Shown here: piece by piece, positions 10,317 through 26,524 of the stretch
Layout: each line of letters opens with the position of its first letter
How positions within the stretch are numbered: position 1 is the first letter of the stretch
Source of the DNA: a virus
Reading direction: 5' to 3' (one strand)
Length of the DNA stretch: 33,807 nucleotides
IMG/VR virus record: IMGVR_UViG_3300044645_000112
Location: 1 to 33,807 of that record
The notes under the pieces: model-generated
What the model was told of the DNA's origin: nothing
The model's database searches: none
The model's input: only the letters and a program-made list of their open reading frames with translations
Translations under genes and position numbers: made by a program

Positions 10317-10722
10317 AACGGTGTCCCAAAAAACGGCACGCATCGCGTGTCATGGTTAGGAAAACAATATCACCGTCGGTGTCGGCGTTCTTTATTCGCG
10401 CTTCCTCGGTGAAACCCATTTTACGCACAAGCCTGATGGCTTTCGCGTTTTTACTGCCCACGGGGGCGATGATTTTGTCAACCCCGCAGACATTGAAAGG
10501 ATAGTCAAACATGGCTGCAATGTAAGCGGGGGTTAAGCGGTCAGAGATGGCGATGTGGCAAACCACGCTGCGCCCGTTCCAGTTCTCGTAAACCACGCCG
10601 CCGACAATGTTCTCTCCCTTACGCAGTCCAATGGCGTTAGAGCGTTCAGCGTGATACCCGCCGCCCGTATGCCCACAGACCCATTCGCCCACCTCGGGGC
10701 CGCTTGTTATATGCCAGCCCAT
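10279..10722 (-). CDS. GNAT-family N-acetyltransferase
   Basis: A 147-residue protein with the GNAT layout: beta strands ENIVGGVVYENWNG and VVCHIAISD, then an acceptor helix region (LTPAYIAAMFDYPFNVCGV), then VGSKNAKAIRLVRKMGFTEE, the conserved acetyl-CoA-binding turn and KxGF motif. It would transfer an acyl group from acyl-CoA to an amine, but the substrate is unknown. GNAT genes in tail-gene clusters are common in podoviruses. It overlaps the 520-residue gene upstream by 16 bases and the next gene by 38 bases. ATG 10722 is the only sensible start. Confidence 0.82.
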   Translation of the reverse strand: MGWHITSGPEVGEWVCGHTGGGYHAERSNAIGLRKGENIVGGVVYENWNGRSVVCHIAISDRLTPAYIAAMFDYPFNVCGVDKIIAPVGSKNAKAIRLVRKMGFTEEARIKNADTDGDIVFLTMTRDACRFLGHRYGQKITEAASGT

Positions 10723-12269
10723 CCGAGTTGATACACCACATCAGTTGAGGCCCATTGAATCGCTAACTTGTTGCTGCTGCTCTGAAACTGTACTGACCCG
10801 CAGTAGCCAACGCCGGTAACGCCCTGCCAGTTGTTCTGAATCTCAAGGTCAGAACCCCACACAGCCGTGTTCCACAACGCGCTGTCCCAAAGGGCAGTCA
10901 GCGGAGTAGAAAACGATATCGGGGCAACATTGTCTGAAATGTTGAAATCAACATTGATGCCGACCCGCACAGACGGGGTGCCGTTGCTGAAAATGCTAGG
11001 CCGTGCGCGTGTAAAAATCTTCTGTACGCCACGAGTCTCAAAGTAGTTAAAGGCTTGAAGAATCTTGCCGTTTATGTTGCTTGTGTCATCAATGTAGCCG
11101 GTGCTACCCGTCGTCCAAGCCTTTGCCACGAAAGTTGCAGCGCCAAAGTACGGAGTGTCGTCAAGAAGCCCAAAGTGAAAAGCATTCCAGTTTGTAAACC
11201 TGCACCACGCCTTCGTGATGTTGTTCATCACAAACTGCTCTTGTGCGCCTTCACGCACCGGGACATTGACGATTAGGGCGTTGTTCTTCGGGTTGTACAA
11301 CATGCACCACCCGAAGTTGTCCCTATACGCCGCAGCAGCCGCCGCAAACGCACCCTGTATCTTGTCCGATAGCGCGATGTTGGGGTCGAGCCGCGAGGAC
11401 TGAAGCGCCGAGGCCATTGGAATCAGCCCGTCAAGCGTCAGCACCAAAAGGTCGCCGCCGTACTTCATCAGGGAGCGGGTGCCGATAGGCGCACCTATAA
11501 TCCACACACCAATCAGCGCCCATGTGGACGCAGATGAGGGGTCGGTGCCACGGTAGACAATGACCTCGCCCTTGTCGGTGACAAATACAAGGTTGTCATC
11601 CACGCCGTAGCCAGCGTCAATTGTCCACGAGGCCATCGACACCAACACGCCGCCCAGACGCGCAATGGATGACAGGTCAAGAACCTGCGCCGCGCCGCCA
11701 ACGCTAGAGGTTGGCAGGTACCACGCCTTAAGCGTGTCCTTCTGGATAAACCACACACGGTTCTTGAAAAGCGTCGGAGAGTTAAGCGTAGTGGTCGTAA
11801 CGCCCGTAATGGCAGGCGAGGATGAACCCGTGATGCTTGTCCAACTTGAGCCGTTGTAAAGATACGGCGTGTTGGTTCCGTTAGCGGCATACAGATAGTT
11901 ACCGCCTGCGGTCGTGACATTGGTGTATTCCCACTTGGAATTTGACAGGCCGCTGACCGCTGGTGCGCCAATAGCACCCGCAGATGTTGCGTTGTAGATT
12001 TTGCCGTCAGAGATAGCCCACAACTCATCGGCTGTGCCGCCGCTGTAGGTCATCAGGGTTTCTACATCGTCGGGAAACCCCGTGGCGTGCTTAACATAGC
12101 CGCCGCGCAAAACAACATTGGATACGCCGGGGAAGTAATTGTCCAACTGCACGGCATCCGTGGGTGCCATGTTGGCGAGAGAATCCCGAGCGTTCCAACC
12201 GCCCACGGGCGACGGCAGGCTTGCGACATTTGCCGCAGAGCGTTGGACGAGGCGACGAGAAACAGCCAT
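10707..12269 (-). CDS. Tail nozzle / DNA-stabilisation-type beta-propeller protein
   Basis: A 520-residue, beta-strand-rich protein with repeated blades (DELWAISDGKIYNATSA, GGNYLYAANGTNTPYLYNG, LVFVTDKGEVIVYRG, LLVLTLDGLIPMAS). This is the pattern of phage nozzle or packaged-DNA-stabilising proteins such as P22 gp10. It would close the tail channel below the adaptor and hold packaged DNA. The N-terminus (PSPVGGWNARDSLANM) is the standard opening of these phage propeller proteins. The start overlaps the adaptor stop as TGATG, which agrees with adaptor-nozzle order. Confidence 0.8.
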   Translation of the reverse strand: MAVSRRLVQRSAANVASLPSPVGGWNARDSLANMAPTDAVQLDNYFPGVSNVVLRGGYVKHATGFPDDVETLMTYSGGTADELWAISDGKIYNATSAGAIGAPAVSGLSNSKWEYTNVTTAGGNYLYAANGTNTPYLYNGSSWTSITGSSSPAITGVTTTTLNSPTLFKNRVWFIQKDTLKAWYLPTSSVGGAAQVLDLSSIARLGGVLVSMASWTIDAGYGVDDNLVFVTDKGEVIVYRGTDPSSASTWALIGVWIIGAPIGTRSLMKYGGDLLVLTLDGLIPMASALQSSRLDPNIALSDKIQGAFAAAAAAYRDNFGWCMLYNPKNNALIVNVPVREGAQEQFVMNNITKAWCRFTNWNAFHFGLLDDTPYFGAATFVAKAWTTGSTGYIDDTSNINGKILQAFNYFETRGVQKIFTRARPSIFSNGTPSVRVGINVDFNISDNVAPISFSTPLTALWDSALWNTAVWGSDLEIQNNWQGVTGVGYCGSVQFQSSSNKLAIQWASTDVVYQLGWAGI

Positions 12270-19322: not shown

Positions 19323-19507
19323 CAGAATTTCTCCAGTTCGCCAAAGAGGGCCGGGGCTTCCTTAAGGTGGACATGGACAGACCGATGCACCAACTCGCCC
19401 TCATGCCAATATTCCACCCAACGGGTATGTTCGTGGTCGTTATCGACCTCGCCCTCGCGCTTATCCAGCAGGGCTTCGTCCATCATCCCTTTGGTCGTCG
19501 TAATCAT
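19322..19507 (-). CDS. Small acidic hypothetical protein (61 aa)
   Basis: A 61-residue protein rich in Glu, His and Asp, with HTRWVEYWHEGELVHRSVHV suggesting one beta hairpin. It overlaps the portal stop as ATGA and the next start as TGATG. I do not recognise a family. Confidence 0.7.
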   Translation of the reverse strand: MITTTKGMMDEALLDKREGEVDNDHEHTRWVEYWHEGELVHRSVHVHLKEAPALFGELEKF

Positions 19508-21756
19508 TGCAGTCGCGGCTCCAGTTCAAGGGCTTGCTGCACCGCCTCCACGCCCACCGCACGCCCATCAGGGCCGCGCACGATGCGCTTGGGGGCAGTC
19601 AGCGTGGCAAGGGCAGTACGCACGCCCTTCATGTTCTCGTCGTTGGACGATGCCATCTGACCGTAAAGCGCCACGAGGTTCTGCATCGCCTGCCTTACCT
19701 CGCCGCCCATATCCTGCATGACGCGCTCGGTGACGGCTTGCTGCTGCTCCAGAGCGGGGATGTCGAGGCCGGGGTTAGCCGAGATACGGGCGACCATGAC
19801 CTTTGTGGCAGCGTCCAAGTCGGCCTTGTACTTCGCCATCTGCTGCTCTGCGGCGATTTTCTGCTGTGCAAGTTGCGCCTCGAACTGCTGCTTCATCTGC
19901 TCCAGTTGCTGGTCATTCTGCGCCTTGAGCGCCTCGACCTGCGCCGATTGCTGCAACTTGGCCTGCTCAATCTGCATGAGCATCTGCGACTTGGCCTGTT
20001 CAGCCTGTGCCTCCATCTGCGCCTGTTGCGCGGCGGGGTTCTCACGGGGCTGCGCTGCCATTTGCTTCAACTGCTCCGTTGCAGCGTCAATCGTACCCTC
20101 AAGCGGACGCGCCGCCTTGAACGCCTGCACGCCGTACTTGAGCAAGTCCATCATCACCGGGACAAGTTCCGGCGAGGCTTGACCGACCGGCAGCGCCTGC
20201 TGCAAGAAACCGCCGAAGGCTTGCAGGAACTGGAGCCTGTCCTGCTTCTCTTGCACCTCGTCAATCTGCACAAGACTGTCAGCGGCGATGTCGATGCGGA
20301 AGTTACGCAACGGTTTGTCGCGGATGAGTTGCAACGCCTGCGGGATGAGCGCCTTGTCAGCGTCCGACATCTGCTCTGCGGCAGAGTAAGCGAGGATGGT
20401 CTGCGGCTGGTACCGCATACACATCACCTGCGCCTTGAGCCTGATGACCTCGGTTGCGAAGAGCGCCACATCTTCCTGCATCGACCGCAGGCGCAGGCCA
20501 GCGTACTGACCCTTGATTTGCTGCGCCGTTGCCGTCTCCGAGGCCGCAGATTGACCACGGATGATGTCGCTGATGCCCGTGATTTCGTATATCTGACCCT
20601 TAATGTCAGCGCGTGCTTGATAACATTGGATGAGCGCCTGCGCGATGGTGTCGAGCGGCAGCAGGTCAACGCTGCCCTTCAAGCCGCCCTTCTCGCTAAA
20701 CGCCGCCCATTTGTCCACCGGGATGAGGGCATTGTTGTCGCCCTCGGTCATCAGACGCTGCAACGCCGGTTGGCTGGCATCGTACACGCCGCGCACACGC
20801 AGCGCCTTGACCAGACCATCGATGCGGTCGGAGAGGATGTCCAACTCCATCGCTTGGTCTTGGTACAGCACGAAGTCTGGGACAGGCACAAGGTTGTCCG
20901 AAGTCGTCGTGGCGTAGAGCGGCTTCGGACAGGGGAAGAACCCCTCAAAGTTAAGCGGGTCGTCACGCACATCAATAAAGTGCGACATACCCTTCGACAA
21001 CCAGTAGACCTTCAGCGTCTCCTTGTCCCAGAGTTCGCAGATTTTGGCGAGATTGTATTGCCGCTTGCTGTCGCGGTAGGCGTTGAGCGTCTCCGGGCCT
21101 TGGTCGGTCGGTATCTGACGCGCCATTTCCTCGCCGAAACGCTCTACAAGCGCCTCACGGGTCATATAGACCCAGCGCCATACCTGACCCACCTCTTCCC
21201 AAGTCCGGCCCTGTGAGTGTCCAAAGTCCTTCCAATGGACATAATCGACCGGGGCGCGTTCGTATTCAATCTCTTCAAGCGGCGGCGGTGCGCCCTCGCC
21301 CTGTTCGATGGCAGAGGTGATGGATACGCCATCATCCTCTACGCCAATGGGGGCAACATGCGGCTCGTACCGCACCCATGCCGTGCCGCGACCGCCGAGG
21401 AACCTGTCCTCGACATCGTATTTCATGGTCGAGCGGAAATCGGGGTAGTGCTCAATCTCAAAGTCGATGGCGCGTTCGACCAATCGTGCAGCGACACGCC
21501 CAACGGGGTCGTTATCGCCGAAGCGTCTGCTTACATCAGCCTTTGGCAGTTTGGCGTAAACGGCAGGGATGAGCGTTTGGACATTGCTCCAGAGGATGTT
21601 GAACTTGGCGGTTTCGTTGCCGCCCGAGCCTCTGGTGTCGTCGCGGTAACGCTTGACGAGTTTCTTTACCCGAGCCTGCCACTTGGCAAACTCGTTTTCA
21701 TAGGTGCCGATGACCCGCAGGTACTTCTCAAGTTCTTGGCTAACGCGCTCGTCCAT
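19504..21756 (-). CDS. Portal protein (P22-like)
   Basis: A 750-residue portal of the P22/podovirus type. The N-terminal clip and wing region includes NILWSNVQTLIPAVYAKLPK and RRFGDNDPVGRVAARLVERA; the segment GGRGTAWVRYEPHVAP is also usual for portals. The last 200 residues form the long Gln/Ala/Glu-rich helical barrel (for example AQLAQQKIAAEQQMAKYKAD), which in P22-like portals extends into the head. It would form the dodecameric ring through which TerL pumps DNA. It starts 3 bases after the stop of the 97-residue gene. Confidence 0.9.
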   Translation of the reverse strand: MDERVSQELEKYLRVIGTYENEFAKWQARVKKLVKRYRDDTRGSGGNETAKFNILWSNVQTLIPAVYAKLPKADVSRRFGDNDPVGRVAARLVERAIDFEIEHYPDFRSTMKYDVEDRFLGGRGTAWVRYEPHVAPIGVEDDGVSITSAIEQGEGAPPPLEEIEYERAPVDYVHWKDFGHSQGRTWEEVGQVWRWVYMTREALVERFGEEMARQIPTDQGPETLNAYRDSKRQYNLAKICELWDKETLKVYWLSKGMSHFIDVRDDPLNFEGFFPCPKPLYATTTSDNLVPVPDFVLYQDQAMELDILSDRIDGLVKALRVRGVYDASQPALQRLMTEGDNNALIPVDKWAAFSEKGGLKGSVDLLPLDTIAQALIQCYQARADIKGQIYEITGISDIIRGQSAASETATAQQIKGQYAGLRLRSMQEDVALFATEVIRLKAQVMCMRYQPQTILAYSAAEQMSDADKALIPQALQLIRDKPLRNFRIDIAADSLVQIDEVQEKQDRLQFLQAFGGFLQQALPVGQASPELVPVMMDLLKYGVQAFKAARPLEGTIDAATEQLKQMAAQPRENPAAQQAQMEAQAEQAKSQMLMQIEQAKLQQSAQVEALKAQNDQQLEQMKQQFEAQLAQQKIAAEQQMAKYKADLDAATKVMVARISANPGLDIPALEQQQAVTERVMQDMGGEVRQAMQNLVALYGQMASSNDENMKGVRTALATLTAPKRIVRGPDGRAVGVEAVQQALELEPRLQ

Positions 21757-22217: not shown

Positions 22218-22519
22218 TTGCTGAACAGTCCAACTGCCAGCACGGCAGCGCCTGCACCCGTCGTGACCTTCCACGGGCCGGTAGCCGCGTTGAGGCCAAG
22301 TTCCACGACATACACGCCAACAGCAGTACTCGCTGGGATGGAAAGGATGGTCGTGCTGCCGTCGATGATGCTGACGGTTGAAGTCAGCGCCGTTGATACC
22401 GTCACCACGATGCGATGCAAGTAATCGTTTGCCGCGCCGTTGGTGCCAAGCACCTGCGCGGTCTGCGAAACGGCGACCGTCTCGTAGGGGTATTGATACG
22501 GAAGATTTACGCCACTCAT
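22214..22519 (-). CDS. Small beta-rich hypothetical protein (101 aa)
   Basis: A 101-residue protein, Val/Thr/Ala-rich with alternating hydrophobic strands (YLHRIVVTVSTALTSTVSII). It starts within ATGA of the TerL stop. A virion decoration or head-to-tail protein seems likely from composition and place, but no family is recognised. Confidence 0.7.
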   Translation of the reverse strand: MSGVNLPYQYPYETVAVSQTAQVLGTNGAANDYLHRIVVTVSTALTSTVSIIDGSTTILSIPASTAVGVYVVELGLNAATGPWKVTTGAGAAVLAVGLFSK

Positions 22520-23850
22520 ATTCGCGCCCTCCTTGAGACGCTACGCTCGTGAACCTGCCACATGTCGTTTAGCGTGACCTCATTCTGTGGCCCAACAATC
22601 AAGGTCTTGCTCTCTAACGGCCTCTGCGCGGACGGTTCAGCCCTCCACGCAACTGCCAACATACGGAAAGCGTCGGCAGGGTGTGATGTCCAATCGTGTC
22701 GAGGTGATGCCCTAAACGCTTTCGTGTCTTCACTATACTCCCGCTGATACTGGCGTAAAGCCTCTATTCCGTCGCCACATTTTACGGAATTAAACCAAGT
22801 TCGGGGCAACATTTGACGAATTGCTTGGATTCCGTCCTGCAAGCCGATGTTTGGCACCACGGACAAATGGTTGATACCGAGGTGGTCAGCCAACTGCTCT
22901 ACGATGCTGCGCCCCGTTTGAAGCGACTTCGCCCGTGCGTCATGCGGCAGGTGATGCTTGCCGTAGGTGTAACCCTTGTTAACGACTACCTCTGCAATGG
23001 CGCGGATGTCTGCACCAGAGACTGCGTAGAAGTCGATGACGCGCACCTCGCCGCCCACCACCTGATACCACCATATTGCGGTGTCGTCGCGGTAGCCCAA
23101 GTCCCATGCGGTGTGTACCGGATACCCCGGCTCAAAAACTACACGCTCGTTAATGCGCGGCTCTGCCTGTCGCATCTCTGTGCCGAAAAACGCGCCGAGG
23201 ATAGCCGCCTCGAAACTGCACTCAAACTCTTGGAGGTATTGGTCCTCCGATAGTTGGGCTTTCGCTGCGTTAAGTTCGCTTTGGGGTAACAGCCCTGACT
23301 CGCTGGCAGGTAGGCGCAACAGGAACCAATCATCCGGTATGCGCTGGGCAATCTGGTAAATGTCGTAGAACTGATTGCGTCCCTTCGGAGTGCCTGCAAA
23401 AACGCACCATCCGGTTTTGTCAGCAAGAGCCGGTCTTAACACATTGCCAAATACGCTGGGCTTAAAGTCACCGTACTCATCGAGATACAGGCCGCTAAAC
23501 CCCAAGCCTCTCATCGCATCGGCGGAATCGCTTCCGAAAAGGCTAATCTTCGCGCCGTTAACCAGCGTCAGGGTCATTTGCGCTTCGTTTGCATCTTTGA
23601 TGAGCGGCTGGGCGTAGTGCTTGAAGTAGTCCCACGCAATGCGGCGTGCTTGGTTCTGGTATGGGGCGACATACCCGAAGAGGCCGTTTGGCCCCTTGTA
23701 CATAAAGGCTGCGCGGATGATGTCGTTAACCGCTGCGACAGTCTTGCCAGCACGCCGATGCGCGACGAGGCAGGCCCACCGCTTTGTGCGGTCGTGGAAC
23801 GGCATGAAGGCCCGTCTAGGGCGGTACGGGAGTTCTACCCGCTGCTTCAC
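22516..23850 (-). CDS. terL: Terminase large subunit
   Basis: The motor and nuclease of DNA packaging. I take GTG 23850, which overlaps the TerS stop as GTGA, giving 444 residues; a TTG at 23865 would add five. The ATPase Walker A is AHRRAGKT (about 30-37) and Walker B is LYLDEYG (about 121-127). The RNase-H-like nuclease shows AWDLGYRDD (about 248-256), HLPHDARAKS (about 300-309) and HDWTSHPADAFR near residue 385. All needed catalytic acidic residues are visible. The length is usual for the family. Confidence 0.93.
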   Translation of the reverse strand: MKQRVELPYRPRRAFMPFHDRTKRWACLVAHRRAGKTVAAVNDIIRAAFMYKGPNGLFGYVAPYQNQARRIAWDYFKHYAQPLIKDANEAQMTLTLVNGAKISLFGSDSADAMRGLGFSGLYLDEYGDFKPSVFGNVLRPALADKTGWCVFAGTPKGRNQFYDIYQIAQRIPDDWFLLRLPASESGLLPQSELNAAKAQLSEDQYLQEFECSFEAAILGAFFGTEMRQAEPRINERVVFEPGYPVHTAWDLGYRDDTAIWWYQVVGGEVRVIDFYAVSGADIRAIAEVVVNKGYTYGKHHLPHDARAKSLQTGRSIVEQLADHLGINHLSVVPNIGLQDGIQAIRQMLPRTWFNSVKCGDGIEALRQYQREYSEDTKAFRASPRHDWTSHPADAFRMLAVAWRAEPSAQRPLESKTLIVGPQNEVTLNDMWQVHERSVSRRARI

Positions 23851-24122
23851 TCGGGCTTGCCCCAAGTCGCCTCAATCTCAATCTTGCTGCCGTCAGGGCC
23901 GCTGTGTTCGTGGCGTGCGAGTTTAGGCACATGGTATTCGAGCAAATCGCTGAAGCACTTAAACGCCGCCTCTGCGCCCTTCTCTTGGTGTATCTCGTCG
24001 AGCCAACCCTGCAAGCGGTCTGCGTTGCCGTCTACGAAACGAGAGATGGCCTCCCTTGCGGCGGCTGTGGCCTTGTTGGGCGAACCTAACGCCCGTCCAC
24101 CTGTTTTCTTTCCTTTTGCCAT
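23847..24122 (-). CDS. terS: Terminase small subunit
   Basis: A 91-residue protein starting MAKGKKTGGRALGSPNKATA, a signature N-terminus of small terminase subunits in many proteobacterial phages. A helical centre (AREAISRFVDGNADRLQGWL) follows and an acidic tail ends in TWGKPE. It would bind the pac/cos region and regulate TerL. The stop overlaps the TerL start. Confidence 0.85.
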   Translation of the reverse strand: MAKGKKTGGRALGSPNKATAAAREAISRFVDGNADRLQGWLDEIHQEKGAEAAFKCFSDLLEYHVPKLARHEHSGPDGSKIEIEATWGKPE

Positions 24123-24142: not shown

Positions 24143-25786
24143 TCAATCTGCGGGGTAATACCCAAACTCAAGCAACGAATCGGGCCATGTCGTTACATCT
24201 TTTGCCTTGACCTTCATAGCCAATACCTTGCCTTTTTGCCCCGGCTTCAATTCTGCGAATTCTTGCGCCACGCTTTTATCAAGCGTAACCCAATCGCCTT
24301 TTGTAATGCCGCTTTTTGCATCGGTCGGAACACCGCGATAAATGGTTACTTCGGCGTCTGGATTGTCTCTTAATCGTTTAAGAGCAGCGACCGTGCCGGA
24401 TTCTCTTGGGTCAGACCCACCAAAATAGCGTAGTGCATTTGGCCCGTAAATGTCCTCCCCAAACGCTTCGTATGCGTTGTCCAATCGCGCCGCGCCGCCT
24501 TCTACAGTCATTGGACGATGGCCCATACGATAGTCAGGAGCCGCCTCCAACGCCTGTGCAATCTTCTGCGGCGGTGCTTTCTGCCCGTCACGCTCCAATA
24601 TGCGTACCTTCTTTTCCTCGCCGGGAAACACGACGAAGTTGCGCGTTCCGGTGCCGCTACCACCGCGACTGCCTGCGTCTAGGTAGCGAACGCCGGGAAT
24701 GCCTGCCTCTTTAAGCATTCGGCTAACATCTTTACTTGCTAACCCGGTGCCGACAAACAAATTTTTTACAATGTCGCCGCCTAATGCGCGGTTGGCAGAA
24801 TATTCAAGAGCGTATGGCGGGGTGCCTCGCTCCTTCATTTTAGCCATCACCATCGGCATCAAAACCCTCCGCACCGCCTCCGACTGCTCACTTAACGGCT
24901 TATCCCAATCGAGCATACGGTCTATCATCTCGTCGGGGAGGTCGGCTTTGTAAAAATGACCTATTGGGTAATCTTTTCCCCAAGTTATTTTTGCGGTTTT
25001 TAGCGCGTTAATTGCTTCCGTTGCGGCATTTTTTGCTTCAACGCTGCTATAAAATTGCAAATTTTCTCTCAAGTTTTTAATTGCGGAATCGGCATCACCA
25101 CTACTGTTTTGCAATGCCGTTTCAGCAAATTTTTTACTTTTCCCGGTTATCGGCAATCCGAATTCAACTGTCATTTCTGGTTTAATTTGAGCCAGTTGTT
25201 TTTGATAACCTTTTGCTACATCGGGGCTTTCGGCAAGGTAAATCCCATGCCCATACGCCTGTGCGCCCTCACCCGTGCCAATCTTGCTAGCGTCAAACTC
25301 GCCTAACGGGTTGGCCTCCGTTTCGGGGAACCGATGCGGAGTGCCGTGGTACACATCTAGTTCAGCGATGGGGGCGGTTTTGCGTAGCGCGGCGGCTATC
25401 CGCATAGGGTCAACCATCGACCCTGCGTATTCACCGGCGGCGCGGGGGCTGGTCATTGCCTGCTGTGCGCGTTCAACCTCGCCTTGTACGAGAGCCTTGC
25501 CCGTCTGAACCGGCTGCGTGACGATTGCCTTGCCGATGGTACCGAGGTCTTGGGCGGCTTGGTCTAGGCGAGGGGTCGGGCGGTCGGCGGCTTGGGAGAA
25601 CTCTGCCGTCGTCATGCGCCCGATGTTGGGGTCGCTCGTAAAGGCTTCGAGGGCGAGTCCACCGACATCCCGTGCGCGGTCTGCGAGGGTATCGACTACC
25701 CCGCCACCGAAGTCAGCGGCACGGTCGCGCATCTGCTGGAGGTATTGCAGCGCGGCTGCATACCGCGACGGTTCCGCTTTTTTCAT
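24143..25786 (-). CDS. Polyvalent protein with two ADP-ribosyltransferase-like domains
   Basis: A 547-residue protein. Domain 1 (about 140-400) has VYHGTPHRF, then GHGIYLAES, then RYLDAGSRG and RNFVVF: the H-Y type ART core found in phage polyvalent proteins. Domain 2 (about 440-547) has VTIYRGVP, GDWVTLDKSVAQEFA and LLEFGYYP: an R-S-E type ART core. The N-terminal 130 residues are Ala/Gln-rich and helical. An A+T-rich segment codes for residues about 180-280, including a Lys/Asn-rich insert. By family knowledge such proteins are often packaged and injected with DNA to modify host targets; this role is inferred. The start overlaps the preceding stop as ATGA. Confidence 0.8.
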   Translation of the reverse strand: MKKAEPSRYAAALQYLQQMRDRAADFGGGVVDTLADRARDVGGLALEAFTSDPNIGRMTTAEFSQAADRPTPRLDQAAQDLGTIGKAIVTQPVQTGKALVQGEVERAQQAMTSPRAAGEYAGSMVDPMRIAAALRKTAPIAELDVYHGTPHRFPETEANPLGEFDASKIGTGEGAQAYGHGIYLAESPDVAKGYQKQLAQIKPEMTVEFGLPITGKSKKFAETALQNSSGDADSAIKNLRENLQFYSSVEAKNAATEAINALKTAKITWGKDYPIGHFYKADLPDEMIDRMLDWDKPLSEQSEAVRRVLMPMVMAKMKERGTPPYALEYSANRALGGDIVKNLFVGTGLASKDVSRMLKEAGIPGVRYLDAGSRGGSGTGTRNFVVFPGEEKKVRILERDGQKAPPQKIAQALEAAPDYRMGHRPMTVEGGAARLDNAYEAFGEDIYGPNALRYFGGSDPRESGTVAALKRLRDNPDAEVTIYRGVPTDAKSGITKGDWVTLDKSVAQEFAELKPGQKGKVLAMKVKAKDVTTWPDSLLEFGYYPAD

Positions 25787-26142
25787 TGCTTTGGGTTAAC
25801 TCGCCGTGCTTCTTGCTCATGTAATCGTTCAGCGTAGCGTGTGCTTTCTTCCGGTGTTTTAAATTTGCCGAGGTGTTCGCCGGTTCGACGATAGTGCTTG
25901 ATGGCTTCATCTTCACTTACGATGCGCCCGTTGACGACTGTGGGGATGAGAACTTCTTCGCCGTCAATGTTAACGCCCATGCTGCGTATCGTACTAATAC
26001 CGCCTTCACCGGGGATTTCGTTCTTTACTCCAAGCCGTTCGTTTAGGTTGATGTTTCCCGGTTCAGTTAGGTCAAACATCGCCATATCTTCTGCGCGGTA
26101 ATTTCGCAAAGCGTCGGCTATTTTTTTAGGTTTATATGGCAT
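25783..26142 (-). CDS. Conserved phage protein of the 'GRIVSEDEAIKHY' type (119 aa)
   Basis: A 119-residue protein with NIDGEEVLIPTVVNGRIVSE followed by EAIKHYRRTGEHLGKF and STRYAERLHEQE. This module is widespread in tailed phages, alone or fused to internal virion proteins and lysozymes, but its function is not known to me. Here it is coupled by ATGA to the ART gene, which supports a virion-packaged partner role (inference). Confidence 0.75.
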   Translation of the reverse strand: MPYKPKKIADALRNYRAEDMAMFDLTEPGNINLNERLGVKNEIPGEGGISTIRSMGVNIDGEEVLIPTVVNGRIVSEDEAIKHYRRTGEHLGKFKTPEESTRYAERLHEQEARRVNPKQ

Positions 26143-26155
26143 TACCTATGCGCCA

Positions 26156-26524
26156 TTATTCAAGGTTTTCGAGTTTGTACTTGAGGCTCGTCACCGCATC
26201 AACCACGGCATCGAACAGGTTAACAAGGTCGGAGTCTTTCGGGAGTGAGCCTTTGATTTCGTCGAGGAAGGTCAGCAGCGACTTCACATACGCCTTCGGG
26301 TTGCTGTTCTTGTGGAACTCGACATCGTAGTCCGTGATGATGCCGTAGCGTCCCTGATACGCCTCGGCGTACTTGTCCACAAGGTCGGGAATGGCTTCGT
26401 AGTATTCTCCGAGCGCCATGTGCTGCGCGAAGGACTTGGTGGCAAGATGCTGAAGGTGCGTGATGGTCGCGCTGTGGAACATGGTTCCGACAAAAAGCGC
26501 AGCGGTTTTTTCGTGAGCAGCCAT
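26156..26524 (-). CDS. Ferritin-like DUF5856 protein
   Basis: A 122-residue all-helical protein resembling DUF5856. The pattern ALFVGTMFHSATITHLQHLA then KSFAQHMALGEYYEAIPDLV places several His and Glu on one face, like a ferritin-like four-helix bundle. Whether it binds a metal is not clear from sequence. It is the first gene of the long leftward late operon. ATG 26524 has GGGGAGAG upstream. Confidence 0.78.
   Translation of the reverse strand: MAAHEKTAALFVGTMFHSATITHLQHLATKSFAQHMALGEYYEAIPDLVDKYAEAYQGRYGIITDYDVEFHKNSNPKAYVKSLLTFLDEIKGSLPKDSDLVNLFDAVVDAVTSLKYKLENLE

What the first reader, a model, noticed from the sequence alone, without database searches (positions are those of the whole stretch)
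24143..25786. Protein with two different ADP-ribosyltransferase-like cores
One polypeptide has an H-Y type core (VYHGTPHRF, GHGIYLAES, RNFVVF) and an R-S-E type core (VTIYRGVP, TLDKSVAQEFA, LLEFGYYP). Two distinct ART chemistries in one late, terminase-linked protein suggest a virion-delivered effector with two targets, comparable in logic to T4 Alt/Mod proteins. The A+T-rich insert at about residues 180-280 suggests modular assembly.
Basis: partly seen in the sequence, partly recalled or inferred. Interest (0 to 1): 0.62.

Follow-up and report, generated by a model that had tools for sequence, protein, structure and literature searches.

The report
Phage effector with swappable enzyme cassettes
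A freshwater phage carries, beside its DNA-packaging genes, a modular protein with one ADP-ribosyltransferase-type domain whose two variable segments are traded between phages like interchangeable parts, fused to a second, still unproven domain of the same general sort.

Summary
The 547-aa ORF is real (minus strand). It has three parts: an N-terminal module (1-140), an H-Y-type ADP-ribosyltransferase domain (141-402) and a C-terminal domain (about 416-547). The middle domain is homologous to ART-PolyVal (PF18760); its third catalytic residue is altered or uncertain. The C-terminal domain is PHROG 2579, misleadingly named "ParB C-terminal". It has invariant H423, R484, T501, E540 and a confident model (pLDDT 90). 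Its best, non-significant fold matches include ART toxins, so a second ART is plausible but unproven. The two-domain fusion is not unique: it recurs in several phage proteins, in both orders.

The stronger result is what the A+T-rich insert is: one of two helical, hypervariable cassettes (V1, V2) in an otherwise conserved ART core. Among 39 distinct relatives there are 22 V1 and 12 V2 types in 27 combinations. Cassettes are either near-identical at DNA level or unrelated. Identical cassettes occur in phages whose terminases are only 69% identical. The gene sits in a fixed slot beside the terminase, where the same N-module also carries LPD23/metallopeptidase-like, ParB-like, R-T-E or unknown domains. 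Most likely it is a small injected effector with exchangeable specificity. Delivery, NAD use and targets are inferred.

The parts
24143..25786 (-). whole effector gene, 547 aa (P0001)
   Evidence: identical copies in contigs of two other metagenomes, L002 and L003
25367..25786 (-). N-terminal module, residues 1-140, shared by slot proteins that carry entirely different C-terminal domains; starts with motif SRYAAALQYL
24581..25366 (-). H-Y-type ADP-ribosyltransferase domain (ART-PolyVal group), residues 141-402; H147 and Y183 are the expected catalytic residues
   Evidence: Pfam PF18760, profile-profile match to PF18760-positive domains, conservation
24956..25204 (-). V1, hypervariable cassette 1, residues 195-277 (38% G+C, predicted helical)
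24884..24955 (-). conserved core 2 between the cassettes, residues 278-301 (FYKADLPDEMIDRMLDWDKPLSEQ)
24704..24883 (-). V2, hypervariable cassette 2, residues 302-361 (predicted helical)
24581..24703 (-). conserved core 3, residues 362-402, with GTRNFVVFPGEEKKV; most relatives end here
24542..24574 (-). junction motif PPQKIAQALEA, residues 405-415, resembling the effector N-terminal motif; suggests fusion of a second effector
24143..24541 (-). C-terminal R-T-E domain (PHROG 2579), residues 416-547; invariant H423, R484, T501, E540; candidate second ART
25783..26142 (-). optional small gene upstream (119 aa) whose N-terminus (KKIADALRNYR) carries the same short motif
26156..26524 (-). DUF5856 gene, upstream border of the slot
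23847..24122 (-). small gene before terL, probable small terminase subunit by position; downstream border of the slot
   Evidence: function inferred from position
22516..23865 (-). terminase large subunit
19504..21756 (-). portal protein

Best explanation
The protein is a compact polyvalent-type effector kept in a hypervariable slot beside the packaging genes of a group of freshwater phages. Its N-module is the constant part, probably for virion loading (inferred). The middle domain is an NAD-using H-Y ADP-ribosyltransferase of the ART-PolyVal group (homology shown, activity inferred). Two helical cassettes in that domain, V1 and V2, are exchanged between phages by recombination in the conserved core blocks (shown). 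They probably set which host molecule is modified or how the enzyme is recognised (inferred). The C-terminal domain was probably added by fusion of a second small effector (inferred from the repeated junction motif and from free-standing and differently fused relatives). It is probably a further ART-fold enzyme with an R-T-E active site (plausible, unproven).
For: Pfam ART-PolyVal in 22 of 27 relatives, best E 2e-7; hhalign 93.5% probability to compact domains, two of which lie in proteins scoring E 1.2e-17 and 2.2e-11 with PF18760. Cassettes: 22 V1 and 12 V2 types, 27 combinations, type counts unchanged at identity cutoffs 0.4 to 0.7. Pairwise identity is bimodal for V1 and V2 but not for the cores. 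The same V1 is 99% identical in DNA where terL is 69% and the flanking cores 74-78% identical; shared tracts end inside the cores. Of 49 ART pairs with terL at least 99.5% identical, 23 differ in cassettes. Thirteen combinations recur in at least two metagenomes. The core/cassette contrast is seen again in phiGT1-type ARTs, and some cassettes have relatives in distant phages and in an archaeal virus. Fixed slot with alternative domains. C-terminal domain: invariant residues, pLDDT 90.3, pTM 0.82, top fold hits in entries of ART toxins.
Against: No direct evidence of virion location, NAD use or targets. The AlphaFold model of the middle domain is weak (pLDDT 70.5, pTM 0.52) and finds no ART structure. 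The expected strand-5 aspartate is not at its usual place (VVFPGEE instead of VVFDD). For the C-terminal domain, all PDB fold hits are non-significant (best E 0.57) and the profile comparison with T4 ModA/ModB/Alt gives only 6% probability.
Confidence: 0.6

Rival explanations
1. The C-terminal domain is not an ART at all but another phage polyvalent domain (a binding or nuclease-type fold) whose R-T-E residues only resemble an ART.
For: No Pfam R-S-E ART model matches the 50 members at a meaningful level; no significant PDB fold match; PHROG calls it ParB C-terminal; an invariant N-terminal histidine is not part of the R-S-E scheme.
Against: Strand with YRG/YRA, strand plus helix with GDWVTxxxxxA, and strand with a single invariant E come in ART order; the top PDB hits are entries of ART toxins (TreX/TreTu), with ExoS, Tse6 and IcmQ lower down; ART-PolyVal is its commonest Pfam fusion partner, 11 of 48.
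Confidence: 0.4
2. The cassettes vary to escape recognition by host antitoxins or phage-sensing defences, not to change the modified target.
For: Large cassette pool, exchange between phages with nearly identical terminases, constant catalytic core.
Against: Equally compatible with target choice; no defence partner was identified (PADLOC no hits).
Confidence: 0.35
3. V1 and V2 are relaxed linkers that drift freely and have no function.
For: Identity between types is near the level of shuffled sequence (median 0.19 for both, against 0.17 and 0.15).
Against: Bimodal identity with nothing between 0.4 and 0.7, near-identical cassettes in diverged genomes, and full-length relatives of some cassettes in distant phages show preserved modules.
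Confidence: 0.07
4. The cassette combinations are chimeras of metagenome assembly.
For: All relatives in the main set come from metagenome contigs, and short conserved cores could mislead an assembler.
Against: Thirteen of 27 combinations recur in at least two metagenomes, including both partners of one V1 exchange (V1 type 0 with V2 type 0 in three, with V2 type 9 in two); the core/cassette contrast repeats in an unrelated lineage.
Confidence: 0.03
5. The protein acts inside the producing cell late in infection (head assembly, superinfection control or host shut-off) and is not injected.
For: Gene sits at the head of the packaging block; no direct proof of packaging; some relatives of the C-terminal domain lie beside replication genes (VH7D).
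Against: Relatives lie among head, tail or injection genes, and its alternative slot domains are those of polyvalent proteins predicted to be injected (PMC5512222).
Confidence: 0.3

Closest known systems
ART-PolyVal (PF18760) / Tox-ART-HYD2 clade in phage polyvalent proteins (Iyer et al. 2017, PMC5512222)
   Same: Strand-1 histidine, strand-2 tyrosine, sequence homology of the core, phage late-gene context, multidomain neighbours such as LPD23
   Different: Much longer domain (262 aa against about 130-150 aa in compact members); two hypervariable exchanged cassettes; strand-5 aspartate replaced or displaced
Phage T4 Alt, ModA, ModB (R-S-E ARTs; Alt is injected)
   Same: Logic of a phage-encoded ART delivered or made to modify host proteins; YRG/WRG strand followed by a T/S strand and helix, as in the C-terminal domain
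   Different: No significant sequence similarity; Iyer et al. [quoted passage not shown]
GenBank MW202573 protein UOF78806 (phage ctTUS972, annotated DNA repair protein)
   Same: Carries the same R-T-E domain (about 56% identity) and ART-PolyVal domains in one polypeptide
   Different: Reverse order, two compact ART-PolyVal domains, no V1 cassette seen, different N-terminus
Sulfitobacter phage phiGT1 gp5 (QLB38217)
   Same: Same long ART architecture in the head-gene block after the portal gene, with V1 and V2 positions
   Different: Keeps VVFDD in strand 5; no R-T-E domain; different N-module
Type I restriction HsdS subunits (analogy only, from general knowledge)
   Same: Two exchangeable specificity segments separated by conserved blocks that allow recombination
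   Different: Unrelated protein and chemistry; specificity role of V1/V2 not shown

Membership tests
ART-PolyVal / Tox-ART-HYD2 | Match to the family profile PF18760 | tested here: inconclusive
   Window protein 24.5 bits, cutoff 31.2, E 5e-5; sibling L054 32.3 bits, above cutoff; 22 of 27 relatives match
ART-PolyVal / Tox-ART-HYD2 | Profile homology to confirmed members | tested here: met
   hhalign 93.5% probability, E 2.3e-7, over the H and Y region
ART-PolyVal / Tox-ART-HYD2 | Histidine in strand 1 and tyrosine in strand 2 | tested here: met
   H147 nearly invariant (Q in a few relatives), Y183 invariant
ART-PolyVal / Tox-ART-HYD2 | Aspartate in strand 5 | tested here: inconclusive
   VVFPGEE in the window group against VVFDD in phiGT1; invariant E390/E391 could serve, alignment uncertain
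ART-PolyVal / Tox-ART-HYD2 | ART fold with NAD cleft | tested here: inconclusive
   Model pLDDT 70.5, pTM 0.52, no PDB match
R-S-E ART | Arginine in strand 1 | tested here: met
   R484 invariant in 50 sequences, in a predicted strand
R-S-E ART | Serine (STS) in strand 2 | tested here: not met
   T501 (GDWVT) invariant instead of S
R-S-E ART | Catalytic glutamate in strand 5 | tested here: met
   E540 invariant and in a strand, single E
R-S-E ART | Match to known R-S-E profiles or structures | tested here: not met
   No meaningful Pfam hit; best PDB fold E 0.57; hhalign 6%
Polyvalent protein | Several unrelated effector domains in one chain, drawn from the polyvalent set, near virion genes | tested here: met
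   Slot alleles with ART-PolyVal, LPD23/metallopeptidase-like, ParB-like and R-T-E domains; next to terminase and portal
Polyvalent protein | Packaged and injected with DNA | not testable with these tools
   needs virion proteomics

The most novel reading that the evidence does not exclude
Phage ART-PolyVal enzymes form a combinatorial effector system: a fixed catalytic core with two interchangeable specificity cassettes drawn from a pool shared across distant phages. Here one such enzyme is coupled to a second, previously unrecognised R-T-E class of ART that is widespread in polyvalent proteins.
Probability: 0.35. Interest if true: 0.8.

Novelty: new variant of a known kind. Interest (0 to 1): 0.62.

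Why it matters
It suggests how phages could retarget or disguise a host-modifying enzyme quickly while keeping its chemistry: swap two helical cassettes by recombination. That makes ART target choice testable with natural allele pairs that differ only in V1 or V2. It also gives a precise and probably better hypothesis for PHROG 2579 (479 relatives found in viral contigs in one scan), now labelled a ParB domain.

Tried and rejected
Sequence search of the PDB with the protein and with both domain profiles found nothing meaningful. NCBIfam gave no relevant hit. Megablast of the window half in phages found no match. The genome scan for a host gave one short MAG contig only. The plasmid search gave distant ART hits only. 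PADLOC gave no hits, so no defence-system reading. Fold search with the ART model is uninformative because the model is weak. Profile comparison of the two ART-like domains with each other gave no support for a duplication. The idea that the two-core fusion is unique was rejected. Assembly chimerism was considered and largely rejected.

Full report
**What was checked.** The window is an IMG/VR viral contig. All quoted motifs are present at the expected places. Coding is supported by conservation: identical proteins occur in contigs from two other metagenomes, and related proteins in about 80 viral contigs.

**Anatomy.** Three modules are defined by how relatives are cut. Residues 1-140 are an N-terminal module that also occurs in front of quite different domains. 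Residues 141-402 are the H-Y ART domain, and most relatives stop right after it. Residues 416-547 are a separate domain that also occurs alone or in other fusions.

**The H-Y domain.** The window protein matches Pfam ART-PolyVal with E 5e-5, below the curated cutoff. A sibling passes the cutoff (L054), and 22 of 27 relatives match. Its profile matches compact ART-PolyVal domains, two of which lie in proteins that score well above the cutoff (P0002 at E 1.2e-17, L101 at E 2.2e-11), with 93.5% probability. H147 and Y183 correspond to the strand-1 histidine and strand-2 tyrosine that Iyer et al. describe for this group (PMC5512222). Their strand-5 aspartate is not in its usual place: the window group has RNFVVFPGEE where phage phiGT1 has RNFVVFDD. 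The AlphaFold model of this domain is weak and gives no fold match, so membership rests on sequence.

**The main new observation: two exchanged cassettes.** The alignment shows three conserved blocks separated by two segments that look unrelated between relatives: V1 (residues 195-277) and V2 (302-361). In 39 distinct proteins there are 22 V1 types and 12 V2 types in 27 combinations, and the counts do not change between identity cutoffs of 0.4 and 0.7. Median identity between combinations is 0.80-0.88 in the three cores, but 0.19 in both V1 and V2, where shuffled sequence gives 0.17 and 0.15. The distribution is bimodal: of 741 pairs, V1 has 707 below 0.4, none from 0.4 to 0.7 and 34 above; V2 has 652 below 0.4, none from 0.4 to 0.8, and 89 above.

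At DNA level the exchange is direct. The window allele and L053 share V1 at 99%, while core 1 is 74%, core 2 78%, V2 43% and terL 69% (amino acids) identical. The shared tracts often end within the cores, as expected for recombination in short conserved blocks. Among 49 pairs of ART-bearing contigs with terminases at least 99.5% identical, 23 differ in cassettes. Thirteen combinations recur in two or more metagenomes, so assembly chimeras cannot explain the pattern. Relatives of the phiGT1 ART, a separate lineage, show the same contrast between cores and cassettes; for example L178 and L182 have core 1 98%, V1 22% and V2 17% identical. Some cassettes have recognisable relatives in distant phages and in Methanosarcina virus MetMV, so they are preserved modules and not drifting linkers. 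A few types are distantly alike (V1 types 16 and 17, 46% locally), so the number of independent families is somewhat below 22. AlphaFold puts helices in both cassettes.

**The slot.** In nearly all contigs that reach far enough, the gene lies between a DUF5856 gene and the gene pair small ORF/terL. In L011 and L012 it lies between terL and portal. The same N-module in the same slot carries other domains: LPD23 with a metallopeptidase-like HELQH motif (L067, L070, L072), a protein matching PHROG 3170 (seen with a related N-terminus), a ParB-like domain after the ART (L010), the R-T-E domain without the ART (L063, L064) and an unknown 300-residue domain (L061, L065). Some contigs have two slot proteins in tandem (L042-L044, L072). 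The slot proteins share an N-terminal motif, [KR][ILVYF]A.AL. Among 1940 distinct ORF starts, only 22 carry a general form of it in the first 20 residues, all of them slot proteins or the small gene just upstream. The motif recurs at the junction before the C-terminal domain (PPQKIAQALEA, residues 405-415), which suggests that the window protein arose by fusion of two effectors. A loading signal is a guess.

**The C-terminal domain.** It matches PHROG 2579, labelled ParB C-terminal domain, and 479 places in viral contigs encode relatives in one scan. Across 50 diverse members the invariant residues include H423, Y483-R484, D498-W499, T501 and E540. The model is confident (pLDDT 90.3, pTM 0.82). 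The order of strand with R, strand with T followed by a helix, and strand with E is that of R-S-E ARTs, with T in place of S. Against solved structures nothing is significant. Four of the five best hits are chains of TreX/TreTu toxin entries (E 0.57 to 1.1; the chains may be toxin or immunity protein), with ExoS, Tse6 and IcmQ entries lower down. TreTu is an ART that acts on EF-Tu (PMC10469887). The comparison with T4 ModA, ModB and Alt is weak, and no Pfam ART model matches convincingly. I therefore do not file it as an R-S-E ART, but hold it as a candidate at about 0.55. Iyer et al. [quoted passage not shown]

**Is the two-core fusion special?** No. ART-PolyVal is the commonest Pfam partner of the R-T-E domain (11 of 48 proteins). 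The order ART then R-T-E occurs with other N-termini in L086, L087, L104 and (partial) L137. The reverse order occurs in GenBank UOF78806, L101, L148 and L166 (for L148 and L166 the ART part is read from motifs).

**What is shown and what is inferred.** Shown: module structure, homology of the H-Y domain to ART-PolyVal, cassette exchange, slot position, conservation of the R-T-E residues. Inferred: NAD use, injection, specificity role of V1 and V2, ART nature of the C-terminal domain.

Noticed in passing
L061:2894-4246, L065:2734-4080: Slot allele with the N-module fused to an unknown domain of about 300 residues that has no Pfam or PHROG match (L061 scanned).
   Followed up: partly
L072:747-2168, L075:1826-3244, L042:4782-6245: Slot proteins matching PHROG 3170 (unknown function; matched in L072), with a related N-terminal motif, sometimes in tandem with the ART or LPD23 protein.
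   Followed up: partly
L067, L070, L072: Slot alleles with LPD23 and a HELQH metallopeptidase-like motif.
   Followed up: partly
L010:1388-3163: ART followed by a ParB-like domain instead of the R-T-E domain, with the same junction sequence as the window protein.
   Followed up: partly
PHROG 2579; window 24143-24541: The PHROG name ParB C-terminal domain looks misleading; the domain is a separate module with R-T-E invariants.
   Followed up: yes
25783-26142: Small optional gene whose N-terminal motif KKIADALRNYR resembles that of the effectors; no Pfam or PHROG match.
   Followed up: partly
L057:975-2151: In this relative the ART gene is split into two overlapping frames, so some copies appear broken.
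   Followed up: no
872-943: tRNA-Gln (anticodon ttg) on the plus strand near the contig end.
   Followed up: no
10707-12269: Protein matching PHROG 5107 (amidase) sits among tail genes; possibly a tail protein rather than a lysis enzyme.
   Followed up: no
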